Assembly (NCBI GenBank): GCA_016931955.1
Contig: JAFGDV010000022.1
Coordinates: 1 to 35,341 of the forward strand
Length of the DNA: 35,341 nt
Direction: 5' to 3'
Source: Candidatus Altarchaeota archaeon
Lineage (GTDB): Archaea; Altiarchaeota; Altiarchaeia; IMC4; QMZM01
Positions 23,748 to 35,341 of this stretch are shown piece by piece (positions within the stretch are counted from its first letter, which is position 1; each line of letters begins with the position of its first letter). Under the pieces are notes generated by a model. That model saw nothing but the letters and a program-made list of their open reading frames with translations. It did not search any database and was not told the origin of the DNA. Made by a program: the position numbers and the translations under genes.

Positions 23748-23910
23748 GGCCGGGATAGGGTAGCCTGGTTATCCTGTGGGTCTGTGGCAAGCTTTTAATA
23801 AAAGCTTGATCAAAAGGTGTGTTTCGTCCCCTTCGGGGACTCAAGCACACTGTATGCAGAGTTGAGCTTGCAGACAACCTACGACTCGGGTTCAAATCCC
23901 GGTCCCGGCC
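23748..23910 (+). tRNA. tRNA-His(GUG) with 88-nt intron (23788-23875) at position 37/38
   Basis: Acceptor GCCGGGA/TCCCGGC; encoded G-1 (23748) opposite C73 (23910); D-arm GGGT-AGCCTGGTTA-TCCT; anticodon stem TGGGT/ACCTA; anticodon GTG 23784-23786; T-arm TCGGG-TTCAAAT-CCCGG. Canonical BHB: helix CTGT/GCAG, bulges GG|C and AC|A, distal helix AAGCT/AGCTT. Confidence 0.93.
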
Positions 23911-23913
23911 CTC

Positions 23914-24245: not shown

Positions 24246-24914
24246 CTACCGTTTTCTGATCAACAGGTAGGCGAATGCCGGCGTCGTCAATAGTATCACT
24301 AAGCCGACTGCTGATGTCGCGAACTCTGGCACATTGGTTGTTGTGCAGTCCTGCGGACAGTTGCAGATGTTCTCTCCTAAGCCACATATCCCATTACCGC
24401 AGTAGGCGCATATCATAGCTCCAACGCACTCGGTGCAGGTCCCGTTTTGGTCTGGTGTGCTGCAGCTTATCGCAGTCAATCCAGGACAGCAGCTAAGAGC
24501 GCCTGGGACTATAGGATAAGAGTCTCCTTCTGGAACACATTCGAACAGCGTTGTTGTTGTGGTTGTTGCCGGTGTAGTTGTCGTGGAAGACGTTGGTTCA
24601 GTGGTCGTCGTAGTTGGTTCAGTGGTCGTCGTAGTTGTTCCACTGCAGCCACAAATTCCAGTAGCTACTTCAGTGCAGACGCCGACTTCACAGTAGCCTG
24701 AGCAACCTTGACCATCCCAGTGGCATTCCTCGATTATTATGGGAGTGCAGTTACAGGTCTGGAATCCTGTCTCTGTGCACTCAGTGCCTGCTGGACAGAA
24801 TCCTTCACAGGCTTCTGCTGTTGGGTTCCAACCGCAGCAAACAGTCTGTGCTGTTGCAGCTGATGCTGTGAACAACAGAATAATTAATCCCAGTAATATG
24901 TTTGTTTTCTTCAT
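24246..24914 (-). CDS. Secreted Cys-rich surface protein with Thr-rich linkers and C-terminal TM (PEF-CTERM-like tail)
   Basis: Signal peptide; 'ECHWDGQGCSGYCEVGVC'; 'TTTTTTEPTTTTTEPTSSTTTTPATTTTTT'; tail 'NVPEFATSAVGLVILLTTPAFAYLLIRKR'. Confidence 0.75.
   Translation of the reverse strand: MKKTNILLGLIILLFTASAATAQTVCCGWNPTAEACEGFCPAGTECTETGFQTCNCTPIIIEECHWDGQGCSGYCEVGVCTEVATGICGCSGTTTTTTEPTTTTTEPTSSTTTTPATTTTTTLFECVPEGDSYPIVPGALSCCPGLTAISCSTPDQNGTCTECVGAMICAYCGNGICGLGENICNCPQDCTTTNVPEFATSAVGLVILLTTPAFAYLLIRKR
24593..24634 (-). repeat. Two perfect 21-bp tandem copies encoding the Thr-rich linker
   Basis: ttggttcagtggtcgtcgtag repeated at 24593-24613 and 24614-24634. Confidence 0.9.
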
Positions 24915-24920
24915 TTTTTT

Positions 24921-26213
24921 TCACCTCTTTACTAATAACTTCTTGTATCCTAAGACCGCTAATAGTAGGATGAACAGGAAGAACAGTAGGAGGCTTACGT
25001 CGCCTAGTGAGATTCCTGTTACTCTCCCGGTTATCCCTGATTCCACTACCTCTGGTTTCTTGCAGCAGCATCCGCAGTAGGATTCGTTTTCGAGTGTCTG
25101 ACAGTATCCTGTTGCGTTGCATACTCCCAAGCCTGCCATATCACATAGTTCCTCGCAGATGAGCTCTAGGTCGCTGAAGCAGCTTTCGCATTTATCGAAT
25201 GGATTCTGTGGATGAGCGACTGTTATACAATCTACGCCGCACGCTGTTGGATAGATCATGGCTTCCAGCGTTGTCGAAGTCGTGGTCGATGTCGTCGTCG
25301 TAGTGGTTGTCGGGCATGGTGGACATGGTCCTCCGCAGTCTATTCCGGTTTCGCCTTGGTTCTGTATTCCATCACTGCAGCTTATGCATGGGTCGCATGG
25401 TCCTCCACAATCTATTCCTTCCTCACAGAGGTTGTGGTGGCAGTTCTTTATTCCATCGAAGCAGGTGTTGATGGCGCCGCCGCCACCTCCACCGCCACCT
25501 CCACCGCCGCCCCCACCGCCGCCTCCGCCTTGGGTCGTGGTGGTTACGCTTTGGGTTGTTGTGGTCACTATCTCGCATGCACAGATTTCTGGCTCCACCA
25601 TGGTGCAGACGCCGACTTCACAGTAGCCTGAACATACTTCACCATCCCAGTGGCATTCTACCTGTGGCTCTGAGATGTATGCTCTGACACCTAGTTCGGC
25701 TGGAGGCCAATTTGTATTCTGTAGTAGGTCGTCGACTGATACCCAATAGCTAAAATAACCATACTGTTGTGATCTGTTTCCTGCTGCTTCGTTGTTTTCT
25801 CCAAGGGATAAACAGAGGTAGTCGCCGTTATCCGCGGAAAGTCTGACTTCAACGTAGAAGTCTTCGTTTTCTTCTACCGGAAAGTCCTCTGTCAGGGTTA
25901 TTGTCTGCCAGTCGGTGCATTCGGCTACGTTATTTAATATGTTGACTGTTTCATTCGTGTAAGGACCCCAGATGTATACGTCAAATTTGTCGCCTGCGAC
26001 GCAGCAGCCGGGCTGCCAGTGCACGTTGACCTTGCTTAGTTTTCCGTCAGCTGGTGAAGTGAATACTACTCGACCACTGTAGTTTTCATTGATTACTAAT
26101 CCTGCGAAGAAGCCTTCGTTGTCGTATTTTATCTCGGTTTCTGCTGTTGCTATTGAGGTCAGCAGAATCAGTGCTATGCATGATAGTACTATGCCCTCTT
26201 TGTTGTTTTTCAT
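24921..26213 (-). CDS. Secreted Cys-rich surface protein with Gly18 linker and C-terminal TM
   Basis: Signal peptide from MKNNKEGIVLSCIALILLTSIATAE (start 26213, SD GGGGTGAT). 'ECHWDGEVCSGYCEVGVC', Gly18, 'CSDGIQNQGETGIDCGGPCPPC', tail 'GITGRVTGISLGDVSLLLFFLFILLLAVLGYKKLLVKR'. Confidence 0.8.
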   Translation of the reverse strand: MKNNKEGIVLSCIALILLTSIATAETEIKYDNEGFFAGLVINENYSGRVVFTSPADGKLSKVNVHWQPGCCVAGDKFDVYIWGPYTNETVNILNNVAECTDWQTITLTEDFPVEENEDFYVEVRLSADNGDYLCLSLGENNEAAGNRSQQYGYFSYWVSVDDLLQNTNWPPAELGVRAYISEPQVECHWDGEVCSGYCEVGVCTMVEPEICACEIVTTTTQSVTTTTQGGGGGGGGGGGGGGGGGGAINTCFDGIKNCHHNLCEEGIDCGGPCDPCISCSDGIQNQGETGIDCGGPCPPCPTTTTTTTSTTTSTTLEAMIYPTACGVDCITVAHPQNPFDKCESCFSDLELICEELCDMAGLGVCNATGYCQTLENESYCGCCCKKPEVVESGITGRVTGISLGDVSLLLFFLFILLLAVLGYKKLLVKR

Positions 26214-26367
26214 TACACCAATCACCCCTTTTTTTGTTAGATAGTACAATAATAGATTATTATTTGTTATATATTGAACTTCAGTATATAAAAATAGCTC
26301 CATTCCTGAACATCTTAGGCATGATAAAGGCAAAAAAAAGTATAAAAATAGGAAGATTGAGGGGGTA

Positions 26368-27222
26368 CTACTTCTTTCCCATCGTCTTCCAGTAGTAAGC
26401 ACCCAAGAGAAACAAGAACAGGATCACTATGGATATAACTATCGTACCACCACTTCCCTCCAGTATCCTGCCAGTCACGGAAGGTAGCGCTATAGTTGTC
26501 GTCGTAGTCTCTAATGAGGTCGTCGTAACCTCCGCACTTGTCGTAGTAGGCGCGGATGTTGGCGTCGATGCCTTTGTTGTGGTAGGCATTATGGTTGTCG
26601 TGGTCGAACAAGGCGCACAGGGTCCGCCGCAGTCTATCCCGGTTTCGCCTTGGTTCTGTATTCCATCACTGCAGCTTATGCATGGGTCGCATGGTCCTCC
26701 GCAATCCACCCCTTCCTCGCCTTGATTCTTTATCCCGTCAAAGCAGCTTTCCTTAGGCTTTGAGATGATACCTCCACCCCCGCCGCCTCCACCACCGCCT
26801 CCACTGCTTCCACCCCCGCCACTTGCCATGGTGGTCGTCGTTGTGATCTGCGTAGTGGTTGTAGTCGGCACCGATGCTGGAACAGTAAGGTCTAATTTGG
26901 TGGTTTCTCCGTTATTGAATACATAGGTTTCTCCTGTGTCTATTCCGTTCACATAGAAGTTGATTGTTTTCCCATCCCGGTTGTTGTTGGGGTCTGTTAC
27001 GAAAAACATCTTTGGGCTGTAACCGTATTCCCCGTTCAAGGCTGTGGTGCTTGCAACCGTTACCCCCTCTATTTTGGCTTCAATCAGTGAGCCATTGGGG
27101 GCTGGACCATTTATGAAGTCGACTGATCCGTAGAATTGATGCGGTACTCCAGGTAGTAGTGTCTGTGCGGTATATAGGCTGCTGAATAGTGCTAATGCCA
27201 GTATAACTACTGTTTTTTTCAT
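26368..27222 (-). CDS. Secreted surface protein with Gly/Thr linkers, two Cys-rich DGIxNQGExGxDCGGPC repeats and C-terminal TM
   Basis: Signal peptide MKKTVVILALALFSSLYTAQT; 'CFDGIKNQGEEGVDCGGPCDPCISCSDGIQNQGETGIDCGGPCAPC'; tail 'PSVTGRILEGSGGTIVISIVILFLFLLGAYYWKTMGKK'. Confidence 0.8.
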   Translation of the reverse strand: MKKTVVILALALFSSLYTAQTLLPGVPHQFYGSVDFINGPAPNGSLIEAKIEGVTVASTTALNGEYGYSPKMFFVTDPNNNRDGKTINFYVNGIDTGETYVFNNGETTKLDLTVPASVPTTTTTQITTTTTMASGGGGSSGGGGGGGGGGGIISKPKESCFDGIKNQGEEGVDCGGPCDPCISCSDGIQNQGETGIDCGGPCAPCSTTTTIMPTTTKASTPTSAPTTTSAEVTTTSLETTTTTIALPSVTGRILEGSGGTIVISIVILFLFLLGAYYWKTMGKK

Positions 27223-27312
27223 TTTCCTTATATATTATACATAAAACAATATAAACTAATTTTAATTGTACAATAGATTAATTAAAAATAAAAAAGAAAA
27301 ATAATGTTGGTT

Positions 27313-30300
27313 CTACAAGCACATCGTCTCCACTAACTCCTCCGGACATGCTGTAGAACGCGCATAGATGTCTTCCATATCCATTAATATCCAGTAACCT
27401 GCGCCAGGATCCAAGTAACTGCATGCATCATAGTTATACCACTGGTGTGGGTTGTCTGGCTCCCAGTAGGTGCTCAGGGAACTCCACTTCGTCGGCCATA
27501 TCCCATAATCGCTCCTCAACGTGTACAGTGCACAGTATGCCCTGTCCCCGTTACCTAATGGCCCATAGTACCCTGACAGATCGTTTGTTCCATGGTATCC
27601 GATCAGGTTCCAGCCCTCGAACAGCCTTCTGCTTGGGGGTGTGACTGCAGGAATCATCTCGCTGCCTCCGATCATAAGCAGATCAGCCTTGTTTGCTATC
27701 ACCCAATAACCCCAGCCGGGTATCATCTGATGCAGGTTATCATTCCCATCATTTCCGTCTGGCGTGTAGACGCACCAGTCTTCGCCGCATATCTGGTGTT
27801 CTGCGTCAAAGGTCCAGACCGCTTCTACGCTGTCTTCCACGTCCTTGAGGACCTCTTTTATGTCGTCGTCTATCAGCATAAACGGCACAGAGACAAGGTT
27901 CCACTTCTTGTTTATCTGTATCTCGAAGGGAACGCCCTCCACCTTAAACTTCTCCTCATCAATTGGTCCCTTGTTGCCTAATGCATCAACGCAGTAGTAT
28001 TCGAGGTTGTGTTCTGTCTCCTCCAGGAACAAGAACTCCTCTACCACCTTGTCGAGACAGCAGAAGCCGTCGCCGCTTGCATTGTATTCTCCAGCATAGA
28101 ATTCACAGTATTCCTCTGTGTAGTCATCTGCATCCACTTCCGCGTTGAAGCAGACCCTTTCATGATCCACTGGATGAGGCTCAGGGTCCACGCACTCAAG
28201 GGATACTGAGGTGTATAGCGTAACCTTCCAGCACTCTATCTCATCCGCCCCACCATTCCAGCAGAGGTCTTTAATCCCCGGATAGAATATAGAATCTTGT
28301 CCATTCCACTTAGTCTTCGGGTCGCCGACTGTCTTATTCGGTTCAGGGGCTGAATTATCCACGAAGACGCACTGCTTGAGCATAGACTCTTTGTCTACGT
28401 TATCCACTGCCTTAACCTCTATCAGGTGACATGACTGCTGACCGATATTCACTGAAGTTACATTTTCAGACACCGTTGTCCAGCCTCCGGAACCCTCCGT
28501 CTCTTGACATATACTATTGTTTGTGCAGTTGCCGTCTCCTACAAGGGTTATCCTGTAGGACAGCTCCTTCAGACCAGATGGATGCGGCTCATAATCAGTT
28601 GCATTCATCGTTATATTCGTCTCTGAGCTGATCCAATCAGCATCGCCGTCATTAAAGTAGGGTTTACCATACCCCTTATAGACTCCTGGCGGCGTCTTGT
28701 CGACGAACACGCACTGAGCCTTCATGTCCTCAGTATTCCCTAAGGCGTCCACGCTATAGTACTCTATCCTGTGGCATGATTCCTCAGATATGTTGAATGG
28801 CCCAGTGTATGTCTCCCACGTAAACGGCAGAATAACCATTCCGGGTATAATTGCACACTCTGTGGAATTCCAGCAGGCCTCATCGTCAACCCTGCCGTAG
28901 CGGTAGTACGTCGTCACATTGTCTACGTGGCATATTGCTCCGCCGTCCACTGCCGTCAGATTAACCCTTGAAGCTGAGTCGATCCACTCAGTGCCATTTA
29001 CTTCATAGTAGGGTCCTAGATACGTCTTCGTCGTATTCGGCGGAGTGGAATCAACCCTGAAGTACTCCAGGTCAGTGGTTTCTTCTGCGTTTCCAAGATG
29101 GTCTGCGCAGTAAAATTCCAGATCGTGGACTGAATCCTCCATGAAGTTGAACTCAAACACCTCATCTCCCACGTAGATGCAGCACTCATCATCTGTCATG
29201 GTTCCATTGTGGTAGGCGCAGTACTCGTCTGTCACGTAACCATCTGGATCCTCATCAAAGGAGACCTTAAAGCACACCGTCTCCTGGCCTACTGGATGGG
29301 GCTCAGGGTCCACGCAATCCAATGTTATCAGCGTTTCCTGGGTGACAAACCAGTCATCAGATGAGGGAACACAGGGTTCGCCGGAGACATTTATCCAAAT
29401 CTCCTGAACCGCTAAAGTCGAGCCGTCACCCACAACCTCCACGTAGAGGTGGTATTCTCCCCCATGCTGGCCTACTGGAACAGACACTGTGACGTTAAAT
29501 GGAACAGATGCTCCGCCTTCAACATCACTGTATGAAGTAGGCGTCCAAGTGATCCAGTCCTCGAAACCAGGCTTCGGCTTCAAGGTCAGATAACTGATCT
29601 TGGAGGTGATGTTCCCAATCAAGGCAACGATCTCTTCAGACAGGTCGCCCGCACTCCCCAGCTCGGAGAAGATGCCACCCGTCTCATTGGTGGCATACTC
29701 CCAGACACTGTCACAGTAACCGCCTGAATCAATGGCGACAACAGATATGCCCGCCGCCTTCAGATCAGCGACGACATTGGACCAGTTGAGATCATCTGAT
29801 GTGCCTGCGATAGCGTCTCTGCCTGGATCAACCCCAGTCGTGGTACCACAACCGAAAAACCCGAGGTTGCAGTCGTGCGGCACATTATCCTCAAATATGA
29901 TAACGATCTTCCTGGATCCAGGCCTCCAGCCTACGAACTGGGACTCATAAAGGGCCCTTGTGTAGGACTCAGGACCATCATCTCCGTTGCCAAGGACCAA
30001 ATCATTGATGGCTGAGCTGACTGCGCTATTATTTGAGGTTATGTTTTGATCCAGGCTCCATGGATAATCTATTCCAGACCCATAGAAGCCAGAATAACCG
30101 CAGTAGTCATAGTAACCATTGTAATCCATGAAGGAGCCCACTCCAAAAGCGGAATTATTCACGAGAGCGCTTATGTTATTCATTATCTCTATTGAACTGG
30201 ACTTGGCTGTACTCAACTGGAAAGACATGCTACCCGTTAAGTCGAACAGGAAGAGCACATCCAGTTTACCGATTGGTGTCTCCTCGGTGGTTACTGTCTT

Positions 30301-32784
30301 CTGCTCCTCGATGGACTGGCCAGGATCCAACGCAGCCATCAGCGTATCCGGCACAATAGAGGCGCCGCTTCCTTCAGGTACTGCGCCGTCGTAGGTTATG
30401 TTCTCACAGCCTTCGCCTCCTCCGAGGGGTATGCTTGGACTGCCGACAGTCTTCACTCCAACAGGTGGAGTACCATCCACGAACACACACTGCGCCTTTA
30501 TCGATTCCTTGTTGCCTAACAGGTCCACTGAATAATACTCGATCATGTGGCATGAATCCTCCACCGCCGTGAAGGGGCTGGAGTATTCAACCCAGCTGGA
30601 ATCATTGTATAAGTGCTCTGGCATGCAGCCAGCAGGCTCCAGACAATACATGTCATCCACCAATGAATTCATCCAGTAGATCTTGTCCACGCCTACGGCA
30701 CACAAAGCATCGGGATTGTCTGTCGCGTTAAGAACGACCTCTGTGTCGAGGTTGATCCACTGCGGGCAGTTCATGTGCACTTTATCCTTAACGCAGGCTT
30801 CCTTGCTCTCATAGCCTTCAGAAGACCAGCTAACATTACAGTAGCCTTCATAGTTTTCCACACAGCATGGCGCCGCCTTATAGGCTCCAACATAGGTCTT
30901 CTCCGTTTCGGGAGGAGACGAATCCACGTAGAATGTTTCATTGTCTGTGTCGCAGTTTCCAAGCGCGTCACAGCATACTATGTGCAATGTATGCACTGTT
31001 TCGTCGTAGAAGGTTATGTTGAATGGTGGAGTCAATTCACTGCAGCCGCTCATTGAAACATTATCTAACTCATAACTCCACTCACATAGGACTTCGTCGA
31101 CTGCGCACCCATAAGTATCGTCGTCGTATGCTTCCACGTGTATGGTTGTCCCTTCCTCAAACTCCCAGTCTTTTATCCAGCAATCCTGTCCCACCTCAGG
31201 CGGGCAGTCCCCAACTTGTGGACCAATGACTGTCTTGGTTATTATCGGGGCCTGAGAGTCTACCTTAAAGTACTCCAAGTCGGTTGTTTCCTCTGTATTC
31301 CCCAGAGCGTCTATACAGAAAAACTCTAGGCCGTGCAGGGAATCTTCTTCGAAGACTATCTCCTTAGGTGCTTCAACGCAACACCACCCGTCTTCTAAGG
31401 CTTCGTCACAGTATTGGTCTGTCGCATTCGCGCCATCCAATGAGACCTTGTAGCATAGTTCTCCCTGGTTGACTGGGTGATCGCCTTGATCAGTACAATT
31501 TAAAGTTATCGGCGTCACATGGTCTCTCACCCAATAAGAGCAATTACTTGGGTCTCCAGGATCACATAACACCTGTGGTTCGCCGACGTCTTTCACCGCC
31601 ATTGGGGGGGTGTTGTCCACGAAGACGCACTGGTAGTTGGTTAACTCAGTATTACCTAAGGCGTCTACGCTGTAGAACTCGACGATGTGACATGACTCTT
31701 CTTTCTTGTTAAACGGGCCCTCATAAACCTCGAAAGGCACTTCTTCATGTATCCCATAGTACTCTGGATTACATTTTGAGGAATCCCAGCATGATGCGTC
31801 GTCCTCAACTACAAAGTCTCTGTAGTATGTGGTGACTCCTCCGATAGTGCATATCTCCCCTCCATCAGCCGAAGTCAGTGTTATAGGTGTGGTGGATGTT
31901 ATCCAGTGGGGGTAAGGCGCTCCCGCGTTGATGTCTGCAGGATAATGCGGGCAACCGTAGGTCTTGTTCGTCTCCGGCGCTTCCGTATCCACCTTGAATG
32001 TCTCGATCTCCTCTATCATATTTCCTGCAATGTCGGCACAGGTCACAGTCAGTACGTGGACTGAGTCCTCCTCGAATGTCATCAAGTACTCCCAGGAGGC
32101 TTCTCCATTCAAATCCTCGTCTACCTCAGTCTGAATTGGGCCTCCGTCCACTGTGTAGGTTATTATGCAGTAGTCTAGGCCGCTTATTCCGCACTCTCCC
32201 TGATCTACAACTGATATGTTTATAACCGTGGACTGAGTGATCCAGCACTCATCTCCAACACCAGGAGGACAAACACCGGACTGAGGACCAGTGACCGTCT
32301 TAGTTATTTCAGGCGCTACGTCGTCAACGCTCGTAGTATCATTAAGAAATTGAATCCAACCAGTTGCTGGGAAAGTCACATCTCTTGTTTCGAATTGCCA
32401 ATTCCACTCGCATCCACTAGTAGGAGTTTTTGCAGAAAAAGTAAAACTTTCAGTATTTCCAGCAGTTATGCGATAGGAGGAATTTTCAGCTACATACTGA
32501 CAAGCCTGTTTTGTGCCAATAAAATTCAACTCCCAACCAGGTTTTTCGTCACACTGGAAGTTAGTATAGCTCATATTTCGATATATCCTCACTTCATCCA
32601 CTGTATCAGGTCCATTATTGGTTATATTGACTGTGTAATCCATTGTCTGGTTTGCGGCGGACCATTCTGGCTGCAAATCAGCTGAGCTTGTATGCGTTTG
32701 TATATGTACCTGGGCGGATGAGATGCCCATAATAGCTGCCAGAAGCAGACAAAATACTCCTATAGTATATACTTTTGTTTTCAT
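27313..32784 (-). CDS. Giant (1823 aa) secreted surface protein: Ig-like/Cys-containing repeats, a VWA domain, two C-terminal GWNLIG...GYWV repeats
   Basis: Signal peptide; about nine 'ESCHxIEYYSVDALGNTE...QCVFVDxTPP' modules; VWA 'KLDVLFLFDLTGSMSFQLSTAKSSSIEIM'; C-terminal 'KKWNLVSVPF...GWGYWVIA' and 'EGWNLIGYHG...GAGYWILM'. SD GGAGGT before the ATG. Confidence 0.85.
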   Translation of the reverse strand: MKTKVYTIGVFCLLLAAIMGISSAQVHIQTHTSSADLQPEWSAANQTMDYTVNITNNGPDTVDEVRIYRNMSYTNFQCDEKPGWELNFIGTKQACQYVAENSSYRITAGNTESFTFSAKTPTSGCEWNWQFETRDVTFPATGWIQFLNDTTSVDDVAPEITKTVTGPQSGVCPPGVGDECWITQSTVINISVVDQGECGISGLDYCIITYTVDGGPIQTEVDEDLNGEASWEYLMTFEEDSVHVLTVTCADIAGNMIEEIETFKVDTEAPETNKTYGCPHYPADINAGAPYPHWITSTTPITLTSADGGEICTIGGVTTYYRDFVVEDDASCWDSSKCNPEYYGIHEEVPFEVYEGPFNKKEESCHIVEFYSVDALGNTELTNYQCVFVDNTPPMAVKDVGEPQVLCDPGDPSNCSYWVRDHVTPITLNCTDQGDHPVNQGELCYKVSLDGANATDQYCDEALEDGWCCVEAPKEIVFEEDSLHGLEFFCIDALGNTEETTDLEYFKVDSQAPIITKTVIGPQVGDCPPEVGQDCWIKDWEFEEGTTIHVEAYDDDTYGCAVDEVLCEWSYELDNVSMSGCSELTPPFNITFYDETVHTLHIVCCDALGNCDTDNETFYVDSSPPETEKTYVGAYKAAPCCVENYEGYCNVSWSSEGYESKEACVKDKVHMNCPQWINLDTEVVLNATDNPDALCAVGVDKIYWMNSLVDDMYCLEPAGCMPEHLYNDSSWVEYSSPFTAVEDSCHMIEYYSVDLLGNKESIKAQCVFVDGTPPVGVKTVGSPSIPLGGGEGCENITYDGAVPEGSGASIVPDTLMAALDPGQSIEEQKTVTTEETPIGKLDVLFLFDLTGSMSFQLSTAKSSSIEIMNNISALVNNSAFGVGSFMDYNGYYDYCGYSGFYGSGIDYPWSLDQNITSNNSAVSSAINDLVLGNGDDGPESYTRALYESQFVGWRPGSRKIVIIFEDNVPHDCNLGFFGCGTTTGVDPGRDAIAGTSDDLNWSNVVADLKAAGISVVAIDSGGYCDSVWEYATNETGGIFSELGSAGDLSEEIVALIGNITSKISYLTLKPKPGFEDWITWTPTSYSDVEGGASVPFNVTVSVPVGQHGGEYHLYVEVVGDGSTLAVQEIWINVSGEPCVPSSDDWFVTQETLITLDCVDPEPHPVGQETVCFKVSFDEDPDGYVTDEYCAYHNGTMTDDECCIYVGDEVFEFNFMEDSVHDLEFYCADHLGNAEETTDLEYFRVDSTPPNTTKTYLGPYYEVNGTEWIDSASRVNLTAVDGGAICHVDNVTTYYRYGRVDDEACWNSTECAIIPGMVILPFTWETYTGPFNISEESCHRIEYYSVDALGNTEDMKAQCVFVDKTPPGVYKGYGKPYFNDGDADWISSETNITMNATDYEPHPSGLKELSYRITLVGDGNCTNNSICQETEGSGGWTTVSENVTSVNIGQQSCHLIEVKAVDNVDKESMLKQCVFVDNSAPEPNKTVGDPKTKWNGQDSIFYPGIKDLCWNGGADEIECWKVTLYTSVSLECVDPEPHPVDHERVCFNAEVDADDYTEEYCEFYAGEYNASGDGFCCLDKVVEEFLFLEETEHNLEYYCVDALGNKGPIDEEKFKVEGVPFEIQINKKWNLVSVPFMLIDDDIKEVLKDVEDSVEAVWTFDAEHQICGEDWCVYTPDGNDGNDNLHQMIPGWGYWVIANKADLLMIGGSEMIPAVTPPSRRLFEGWNLIGYHGTNDLSGYYGPLGNGDRAYCALYTLRSDYGIWPTKWSSLSTYWEPDNPHQWYNYDACSYLDPGAGYWILMDMEDIYARSTACPEELVETMCL

Positions 32785-32809
32785 TGTTTACCTCCATAAA
32801 AATTGGTTT

Positions 32810-33340
32810 TAGATAAGGGTGAGAATCTGAATCTAGAATTAGGTATGAGATCAGCCTCATAGGCTCTGCCATAGCCTAATAACGGAATAACACACGTCAC
32901 ATACCCACCCTTTAGATGCTAGGGCTAAAAAACCCCACCATAGACTCGCATACTTGGTGTTTGCTCATAGAACAAACATTATCCCAAATAGACTCATAAT
33001 ATATGGTTACCTATAATCGCAAGGGTTTAAAAAGGATTATTTCGTTACCAAAAACTGCCTAAATTATCGGACAAAGTCCTAAACCCGATATCTAGAAAAA
33101 AAATTATTTCAGCAATCCTCGTCAACATAGGATAGTGTTCTAAACAAGGGATAGACGAGGAAAAAGCCAGTAAGAGTTTAAGCAGGGGTGAGAGGACCTA
33201 AATTCCGTAGAGGGCGCAAGGAATTTAGAAGTAGGTCCGGATCGCTTTAAAGATAATCGACTTACATCGATCACCCGTTTTGTTTTACTGAGGTAAAACA
33301 TCAGCCAATCACCCCTGCTCCTCCGTAATAGGAGGTAGTA
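32810..33340 (-). promoter_or_regulatory. Hairpin-rich intergenic region; candidate long structured 5' leader or ncRNA (minus strand favoured)
   Basis: Perfect inverted repeats: AGCAGGGGTGA(33181-33191)/TCACCCCTGCT(33309-33319); GGACCT+AAATTCC(33194-33206)/GGAATTT(33220-33226)..AGGTCC(33233-33238); TGTTTTAC/GTAAAACA(33281-33300); TCCTCGTC/GACGAGGA(33116-33161); AAGGGTG/CACCCTT(32815-32912); three-way junction 32838-32880. Confidence 0.5.
33140..33301 (-). CDS. Candidate 53-aa upstream ORF in the structured leader
   Basis: Minus-strand ATG at 33301 preceded by GGGGTGATTGG-CTG; translation MFYLSKTKRVIDVSRLSLKRSGPTSKFLAPSTEFRSSHPCLNSYWLFPRLSLV*. Same SD sequence and near-identical spacing as the 26213 start. 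Confidence 0.25.
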   Translation of the reverse strand: MFYLSKTKRVIDVSRLSLKRSGPTSKFLAPSTEFRSSHPCLNSYWLFPRLSLV

Positions 33341-33508
33341 ATATATTGAACATTATTTTTTATAAATCAACTAAATCCTGATAATGTATGATAAATTTCC
33401 TGATAATAAATTTTAAATCCCAATAAAATCCTTAGATGATATAAATCGTTCGATTTCTTTTGACAGTCAGACTGTATTTATCCAAAAAAAGCCAATAAGG
33501 TAAAGCAG

Positions 33509-35341
33509 ATGGAACTCGTTTTCGGAGACTATGGAATAGAACAACCGTACCTATTACTTCTCATAATCCCCACCATGTTCGCCCTCCACCACTACATAAA
33601 AAAAGGCGGCATGAACAAAGGCAAATGGTTCTTTCTCTTCACGCGGCTCGTGATCGTTTCAATAATAGCCATAGCACTAACCTCGCCATTCACCTCCACG
33701 ATAACAGAAGAATTCAAGGACCTGACGTCCATAACCATACTCTTCGACCAATCAGAGAGCATGACGGTAACAGACATCGACAAAGACCTTGCAGATAAAA
33801 TATACGACGACATATCATCCGCTATCGGGAACCTGACAGGCAACAGAGGGGCTGTGGAGCAGAAGCACTTCTCTGAGGGGAACAGAACAGAGATAGGCAA
33901 CGCACTCTACAAGGAAACGCTGGGTAAGAGCAAGGAAAAAAACCTCATAGTGCTATTAAGCGACTGCAACAACAATTACGGCAGGGACGCGTCAGACATG
34001 GCGCAGGTGCTAGCAGAAGCGAACATCACCGTCTACGCAGTCATCCCAAACACCATACAAAAGGACGTATACATATCAGAGATGACTGGAGACAAAAAAA
34101 CCCCTGCCAATGCAGACTATACGCTCAAGATAGGGGTGGGGAAGGCGGGTTCAGATGTGTCGGAGTACAACCTCCTCCTGAAGGTTGACGACAACCTGAT
34201 CCATATGGTGAACAACGTAGTCCAGGTAGAGGACACCAAATCCTTCCGCTTCACCTTCTCGATGAAGGACGAAGGCGTGCACAAGATAACGGCGGAGATA
34301 AAACCTAAGGGCGAAGACCTCTTCAGGATAAACAATGAGATGATCAAAAGCGTCGATGTCGTGGAACGCCCGGACGTACTTCTGGTGACTGAAAACCATA
34401 ACTCGCTGCTCTCAACCCTCCTCAATGAGAACTACGACGTCTTCAGGACAACGCTTCCGAGACAGGACTACAGCAAATACGATGTTGTTTACTTCGACAA
34501 CGTACCGGTGGAGAGGATGGATGACTGGGTCATTAATTCACTGAACAACTACGTCGTCGAAGGCAACGGACTCGTTGTTGTCGGCGGAGAAAAAGCCTAT
34601 GAAAGGGGTGACTACCATAATAGCCAGATAGAGACCCTGCTCCCAGTTATATCCACGGAGCCGCCGGAGAAGAAGAGAAAAGAGATCGCAGTCATATTCC
34701 TCATAGACATCTCAGAGAGCACAAGCTACGGCATGACAGGAGAGACAAAAGTCGATGTTGAAAAGGCTTTGGCGATAAACATGCTAAGGCAGTTAGACTT
34801 AGACGACATGGTTGGTGTGATAGCCTTCAACGTTAAAGCATACACTGTATCTCCACTCAAAAAGATCGAAGACGTCGAATTAGAGCTTGAGACTAGGATA
34901 AGGTCGCTGACATTCACCGGAGGCACAGACATGATGGAAGCCCTCCTCCAGGCAGAAACGCTCTTCGGCGACTTCGAAGGTAAAAAATATGTGATATTGA
35001 TCTCAGACGGCGTCATACAGAGACTCTCTAGGGAGGAGACAACCCTGCAACATGTGAAGTCCATGAACGACAAAGGCATTACAGTCTACACTGTGGGCGT
35101 GGGCTTTGACACAAACGAGAGATTCATGAGAGCCCTCGCCGACACAGGAAAGGGGATCTACTTCAGACCAGAGGACTATGAGCGGCTTCATATAGAGTTC
35201 GAGGAAAAAGAGAAGGTGGAAAAAGACCAGTACACGCTGGGAGTATACAACAAGTACCACTTCATAACACGCGACCTCACGCAGTTCTGGCCTGCAATAA
35301 AGGACTTCAATGGGGTGACTGAGAAATCAGTGGCCCAGGTT
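33509..35341 (+). CDS. Membrane protein with two VWA domains flanking a GATase1-like segment (BatA-like N-terminus); 3' truncated by window end
   Basis: Not in the ORF track because there is no stop in the window. MELVFGDYGIEQPYLLLLIIPTMFALHHYIKKGG...; VWA1 'SITILFDQSESM'; 'PDVLLVTENHNSLLSTLLNENYDVF...NYVVEGNGLVVVGGEKAY'; VWA2 'EIAVIFLIDISESTSYG...FTGGTDMMEAL...KYVILISDGV'. Confidence 0.85.
   Translation, partial: MELVFGDYGIEQPYLLLLIIPTMFALHHYIKKGGMNKGKWFFLFTRLVIVSIIAIALTSPFTSTITEEFKDLTSITILFDQSESMTVTDIDKDLADKIYDDISSAIGNLTGNRGAVEQKHFSEGNRTEIGNALYKETLGKSKEKNLIVLLSDCNNNYGRDASDMAQVLAEANITVYAVIPNTIQKDVYISEMTGDKKTPANADYTLKIGVGKAGSDVSEYNLLLKVDDNLIHMVNNVVQVEDTKSFRFTFSMKDEGVHKITAEIKPKGEDLFRINNEMIKSVDVVERPDVLLVTENHNSLLSTLLNENYDVFRTTLPRQDYSKYDVVYFDNVPVERMDDWVINSLNNYVVEGNGLVVVGGEKAYERGDYHNSQIETLLPVISTEPPEKKRKEIAVIFLIDISESTSYGMTGETKVDVEKALAINMLRQLDLDDMVGVIAFNVKAYTVSPLKKIEDVELELETRIRSLTFTGGTDMMEALLQAETLFGDFEGKKYVILISDGVIQRLSREETTLQHVKSMNDKGITVYTVGVGFDTNERFMRALADTGKGIYFRPEDYERLHIEFEEKEKVEKDQYTLGVYNKYHFITRDLTQFWPAIKDFNGVTEKSVAQV

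What the first reader, a model, noticed from the sequence alone, without database searches (positions are those of the whole stretch)
32785..33340. ~550-nt highly structured leader/ncRNA upstream of the giant surface protein
Seen: a 724-nt non-coding gap (32785-33508) in an otherwise tightly packed window, filled with perfect inverted repeats including an 11-bp closing stem (33181-33191/33309-33319) around a ~139-nt domain, a two-part bulged hairpin, an 8-bp TGTTTTAC/GTAAAACA hairpin, an 8-bp TCCTCGTC/GACGAGGA stem and a three-way junction at 32838-32880. A TATA-like motif at 33338-33351 would place a minus-strand start near 33320, at the base of the 11-bp stem. I found no RNase P (GAGGAAAGUCC) or SRP helix 8 signature. 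Inference: a novel structured RNA, riboswitch-like leader or stable ncRNA.
Basis: partly seen in the sequence, partly recalled or inferred. Interest (0 to 1): 0.7.

Follow-up and report, generated by a model that had tools for sequence, protein, structure and literature searches.

The report
New conserved structured RNA in Altiarchaeota
A roughly 160-base folded RNA, read from its own promoter and kept in at least five related deep-sediment archaea, sits here beside cell-surface protein genes; it matches no known RNA family, and is probably a regulator of its own rather than part of the giant gene next to it.

Summary
The 724-nt gap and the named stems exist. Only about 160 nt (minus strand, 33338-33181) folds far better than chance (z about -5) and is conserved. 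The remaining 385 nt (33170-32785) folds unremarkably (z -1.5) and gave no match in relatives. Covariance searches found clear homologs in two other Altiarchaeota genomes and two diverged ones. All share a TATA promoter, a closing stem P1 with three compensated pairs, and an exposed CCCUCUAC. No Rfam family matches, and RNase P RNA and SRP RNA lie elsewhere in the genome.

"Leader of the giant surface protein" is not supported. In the sister species the RNA is kept without the giant gene, and the giant gene is kept elsewhere without the RNA. In the window a hairpin plus U8 tract and a second promoter-like site separate the two.

In two other genomes the RNA directly precedes a different surface-protein family, whose copies elsewhere use the same promoter type. 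Best explanation: a lineage-specific regulatory RNA of the surface-protein regulon, now an independent short transcript in this genus. A cis-acting, riboswitch-like leader is the main rival. Target, ligand and transcript are unproven.

The parts
33350..33387 (-). Promoter of the RNA: TATA box TTTATAAA (33366-33359) flanked by ACATTAT (33387-33381) and ATAATGT (33356-33350), an inverted repeat
   Evidence: Conserved in three genomes. TTTATANARAATAATGTTCAA occurs without mismatch only at the three RNA loci and before one surface gene in G003. Coordinates checked. Not tested experimentally.
33320..33335 (-). P0: hairpin CCTCC/GGAGG just 5' of P1
   Evidence: Predicted folds in G000, G001 and G009 each place a hairpin here; the sequence is not conserved
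33181..33319 (-). Core of the conserved structured RNA, closed by P1 (33319-33309/33191-33181)
   Evidence: R1 hits in G000, G001, G009. P1 100% paired in five genomes with three pairs changed on both sides. Alignment-level fold beats all 300 column shuffles.
33281..33300 (-). P2 hairpin TGTTTTAC-CTCA-GTAAAACA; GATGTTTTACCTC invariant in G000, G001, G009
33195..33306 (-). P1b: short inner helix GGC (33306-33304) with GTC (33197-33195)
   Evidence: Consensus fold; a G-U pair in G000/G001 reads A-U in G009
33256..33280 (-). P3: optional hairpin (around GGGTGATCGATGTAAGTCGATTATC), deleted in G001
   Evidence: Folds; 24-nt gap in G001. Ends approximate.
33198..33228 (-). P4 hairpin CTAAATTCC-[TTGCGCCCTCTAC]-GGAATTTAG, loop 33219-33207
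   Evidence: Loop invariant in three genomes; CCCTCTAC also kept in G005 and G011
33116..33161 (-). Hairpin TCCTCGTC/GACGAGGA downstream of the core
   Evidence: Fold z -2.2; not conserved
33096..33103 (-). U8 tract, candidate terminator of the RNA in this genome
   Evidence: Sequence; inference from known U-tract termination in archaea
33026..33033 (-). TTTTTAAA, candidate TATA box of the giant gene itself
   Evidence: Followed by ATTATAGGTAACCA; the G001 ortholog has CTTTTTA and ATTATAGGTAAGCA upstream in the same register. Short match, weak evidence.
27313..32784 (-). Giant surface protein (1823 aa); its ortholog in G001 has no RNA upstream
24921..26213 (-). Surface protein of the 'SPA' family (430 aa); homologs follow the RNA directly in G009, G011 and (truncated) G005
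   Evidence: the same promoter type lies at 26292-26271
33509..35341 (+). Divergent VWA (BatA-like) gene; the RNA also lies on the divergent side of this gene in G001, G005 and G011

Best explanation
It is a new, Altiarchaeota-restricted structured regulatory RNA tied to the cell-surface protein regulon. Shown by sequence: an RNA of about 160 nt on the minus strand with a conserved TATA promoter, P0, a closing stem P1, hairpins P2 and P4 and an optional P3. Its promoter belongs to the same type as the promoters of a surface-protein family ('SPA'). The RNA lies directly before SPA genes in G009 and G011 but is free-standing in the window's genus. Inferred: in the window it is a short independent transcript starting near 33338 and ending at or before the U8 tract (about 33100). 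Inferred mechanism: it acts in trans through its exposed pyrimidine-rich segments (ACCUC at P2, CCCUCUAC in the P4 loop), which could pair with purine-rich ribosome-binding sites of surface-protein mRNAs, or it is bound by a protein there. P1 itself masks a ribosome-binding-site-like strand (GGGGUGAUUGG).
For: Homologs in G001 and G009 (E 1e-22 and 3e-25), then diverged ones in G005 and G011 (E about 0.03 on first sight, next to the same VWA gene). P1: all 40 cells paired, three pairs with compensatory change, the best of all slid registers. Consensus fold z -8.4 against column shuffles. Conserved promoter. Independence from the giant gene: G001 keeps the RNA with no surface gene behind it, and keeps the giant gene on another contig without the RNA. 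U8 and a second TATA-like site separate RNA and gene; U-rich tracts also follow P1 in G005 and G011. Of 17 gene starts in the window, 5 pair with the P2 segment better than 95% of random sites, including the giant gene and two other surface genes.
Against: No transcript data. Only five genomes, two of them sister species (G005/G011). P2 and P4 stems show almost no variation, so they are not proven by covariation. The ribosome-binding-site pairing is what any anti-Shine-Dalgarno-like sequence would show; the P4 loop shows no preference for such sites, and GAGGTAAA is not found at starts in the G001 and G009 stretches. In G009 and G011 the RNA sits 33-62 nt before an open surface gene, as a cis-leader would.
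Confidence: 0.5

Rival explanations
1. A cis-acting 5' leader (riboswitch-like or protein-bound attenuator) of surface-protein genes of the SPA family. P1 opens and closes to expose or mask a ribosome-binding site. In the window's genus the leader has been separated from its gene.
For: In G009 the SPA gene starts 33 nt after P1. Its ribosome-binding site GGGUGGUU repeats the 5' arm of P1, so the 3' arm (ACCACCC) could pair with either: a classical switch layout. In the window the SPA gene 26213-24921 has GGGGTGATTGG, identical to its own RNA's P1 arm. G005/G011 also have the RNA before an SPA gene. P2's ACCUC could pair with the same GGGGU.
Against: G001 has the RNA intact with no gene behind it. 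In the window the gene behind is unrelated, 397 nt away, beyond a U8 tract and a second TATA-like site. Window and G003 SPA genes have the promoter but no RNA. The G001 SPA gene has neither the RNA nor this ribosome-binding site. No match to any Rfam riboswitch.
Confidence: 0.35
2. A small-protein gene: SD GGGGUGAUU, AUG at 33301, ORF MFYLSKTKRV...SKFLAPSTEFRS... of 53 codons, partly conserved in G009.
For: AUG with a good SD in G000, G001 and G009. SKFLAPSTEFRS in frame in G000 and G009; the G009 ORF overlaps the SPA start by ATGA.
Against: Two in-frame stops in G001 after 8 codons. The 20 residues between the two conserved bits are unrelated. No AUG in G005/G011. The P4 stretch has a single difference among three genomes, wobble positions included, which points to constraint on the RNA.
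Confidence: 0.05
3. Non-functional: a repeat-like or decaying leader fragment kept by chance or by gene conversion.
For: Patchy: 3 clear cases in 29 phylum genomes (5 with diverged ones). Related 14-mers occur in another repeated element.
Against: Compensatory changes in P1, an invariant 13-nt loop and a conserved promoter between genera whose proteins are 60-70% identical.
Confidence: 0.1

Closest known systems
Archaeal trans-acting sRNAs such as Methanosarcina mazei sRNA162 (PMC3510493, abstract seen)
   Same: Short, own promoter, structured; sRNA162 is reported to target cis- and trans-encoded mRNAs through two domains
   Different: No sequence relation was found or claimed; targets here are only guessed; different phylum
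Riboswitch-type 5' leaders (Rfam classes)
   Same: Three-way-type architecture closed by P1; in G009 P1 can compete with a ribosome-binding site
   Different: No Rfam match even at E 5 except chance hits; not always in front of a gene
Archaeal RNase P RNA (RF00373) and archaeal SRP RNA (RF01857)
   Same: Large structured RNAs of archaea
   Different: Both have their own clear loci elsewhere in this genome

Membership tests
   G001 ortholog at C66 has no RNA upstream (R1 none); the G001 RNA has no such gene downstream
   U8 tract and second TATA-like site argue against it; RNA-seq needed
Any Rfam family | Match at the gathering score | tested here: not met
   permissive search gave only E 3.6-4.3
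Archaeal RNase P RNA | Match to RF00373 at this locus | tested here: not met
   the genome's single match is at C40:382-655
Archaeal SRP RNA | Match to RF01857 at this locus | tested here: not met
   the genome's single match is at C38:94034-94309
Riboswitch / cis-regulatory leader | Consistent position 5' of the regulated gene | tested here: inconclusive
   met in G009 and G011, gene truncated in G005, not met in G001, distant and unrelated gene in G000
Riboswitch / cis-regulatory leader | Ligand-dependent switch | not testable with these tools
   needs in-line probing or a reporter
Trans-acting sRNA | Own promoter | tested here: met
   conserved TATA promoter motif; sequence evidence only
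Trans-acting sRNA | Conserved complementarity to target mRNAs | tested here: inconclusive
   P2 segment fits some ribosome-binding sites in the window, P4 loop does not
Structured RNA (general) | Compensatory base changes | tested here: met
   P1: three pairs changed on both sides in five genomes; P4 and P2 uninformative

The most novel reading that the evidence does not exclude
This RNA and a second conserved element with the same start (P0 hairpin, P1 GGGUGGUUGGCUGA, hairpin, CCACCC; next to a coiled-coil/winged-helix-like gene in other Altiarchaeota) form one new archaeal RNA superfamily, in which a ribosome-binding-site mimic is masked by mutually exclusive pairings. That would be a new class of switch or SD-targeting RNA controlling the archaeal cell surface.
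Probability: 0.15. Interest if true: 0.7.

Novelty: new member of a known kind. Interest (0 to 1): 0.45.

Why it matters
Few structured RNAs are known from uncultivated archaea, and I found no paper on Altiarchaeota regulatory RNA. A defined RNA with a conserved loop and promoter at surface-protein loci gives a concrete candidate for post-transcriptional control of cell-surface proteins in this phylum, and a model that others can search with.

Tried and rejected
RNase P and SRP RNA, tRNA/tmRNA and all Rfam families: rejected. The 17-mer of the P4 loop in other genomes: 18 hits, only the two Altiarchaeota are real, the rest are chance by covariance model; none in viral contigs. Small protein: in-frame stops in G001. 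Complement of the P4 loop in the genomes: no target beyond the RNA itself and two one-mismatch sites in G000. Plus-strand RNA: weaker in model and consensus fold. Model R2 scores for G005/G011 (E 1e-10) are circular because they were in its alignment; only their first detection (E about 0.03) counts.

Full report
Setting. The window lies in contig C38 of a 1.55-Mb archaeal genome. Twenty-nine genomes of the phylum are held.

What the sequence shows. The minus strand of 33100-33345 folds much better than shuffles (z -5.8; plus strand -4.6). The rest of the gap, 32785-33170, does not (z -1.5). DNA search of relatives hit only about 33175-33396.

Conservation. Aligning G000, G001 and G009 shows a conserved promoter (TTTATAAARAATAATGTTCAA, flanked upstream by ACATTA), then a variable P0 hairpin, then the core. 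Invariant blocks are GATGTTTTACCTC and TTCTAAATTCCTTGCGCCCTCTACGGA. P1 has two compensated pairs among three genomes and G-U pairs that point to the minus strand. The consensus fold has z -8.4 against column shuffles on the minus strand and -6.7 on the plus strand. A covariance model finds exactly these three at E below 1e-20 in the phylum.

Diverged homologs. The model then gave full-length weak hits in G011 and G005 (E about 0.03), in both cases on the divergent side of the same VWA gene and just before an SPA-type surface gene. They share GGGTGGTTGGCTGA, a matching P1 with a new compensated pair, AATCC-TT---CCCTCTAC, and U-rich tracts after P1. With five genomes all 40 P1 cells pair and three pairs have changed on both sides; slid registers give 45-70% paired. 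P4 is not kept as a stem in G005/G011, but CCCTCTAC stays exposed. MAFFT made this alignment without knowledge of the structure.

Independence from the giant gene. G000 and G001 are collinear from the Kef-type transporter to the VWA gene. In G001 the GalT-like gene and an intron-bearing tRNA are followed directly by the RNA; in the window four surface genes lie between. The G001 ortholog of the giant protein and its neighbour are on another contig, C66, with an AT-rich upstream region and no RNA. Short collinear matches (CTTTTTA, then ATTATAGGTAA-CA) suggest that the giant gene has its own promoter at about 33033 in the window; this is weak evidence. A hairpin and U8 tract (33161-33096) lie between. 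So the RNA is not a conserved part of the giant gene.

Link with the SPA surface family. The SPA gene in the window (start 26213) has a promoter of the same type (TTTTTATATACTGAAGTTCAATATATAAC) and ribosome-binding site GGGGTGATTGG, identical to the 5' arm of P1. In G009 the gene 33 nt behind the RNA has GGGTGGTTGA, again identical to its own P1 arm. G003 has the promoter and the gene but no RNA. This fits either an origin of the RNA from an SPA leader or a functional competition for the ribosome-binding site. G001 does not fit the latter.

Mechanism. I prefer an independent regulatory RNA acting through its exposed pyrimidine segments (0.5) over a cis-acting leader switch (0.35). Interaction energies are only suggestive: the P2 segment pairs well with 5 of 17 ribosome-binding sites in the window, as any anti-SD-like sequence might, and the P4 loop shows no preference. 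No step of the mechanism is shown experimentally.

Known or new. No Rfam family matches. A paper search for Altiarchaeota with non-coding RNA gave one unrelated paper. I file it as a new RNA family of a known kind.

Noticed in passing
L134 (1592-1501 and 1816-1803), L136 (1560-1501), L137 (1560-1501), L138 (1559-1501), L140 (1611-1501), L142 (153-140), L146, all minus strand: A second conserved element: GGGTGGTTGGCTGAATTACCACATC...GATGTGAT..., preceded in several loci by a GC-rich hairpin and followed by CCACCC. It lies beside the 3' end of a conserved coiled-coil gene with no Pfam match in six loci (L134, L136-L138, L140, L146). It shares the first 14-15 bases and the layout with the window RNA; no Rfam match in the six loci tested (L142 not tested).
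   Followed up: partly
window 33381-33387 and 33350-33356: ACATTAT and ATAATGT flank the TATA box as an inverted repeat, nearly identical in the three close homologs (G009 has ACATTAG): possible binding site of a dimeric regulator.
   Followed up: partly
window 23750-23912: A tRNA-like gene with an intron, missed by ARAGORN; its counterpart in G001 is L002:1231-1343. The surface-gene island lies between it and the RNA in the window and is absent there in G001.
   Followed up: partly
window 24246-32784: Four surface proteins with Thr-rich linkers and repeated CxDGIxNxxExGIDCGGPCxPC motifs; such motifs occur in many copies across the phylum's genomes.
   Followed up: no
L129 (G005:C33:10500-12600): In G005 a ~72-nt segment with promoter-like sequence and the start of the RNA is tandemly duplicated, and the SPA gene behind it seems to lack its N-terminal signal part compared with G011.
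   Followed up: no
L135:1501-1577 (G006:C72): GGGTGGTTGGTTGATGTTTTAC resembles the 5' part of the window RNA (R2 E 0.046) but lacks CCCTCTAC in the same layout; beside a tRNA-like sequence.
   Followed up: no
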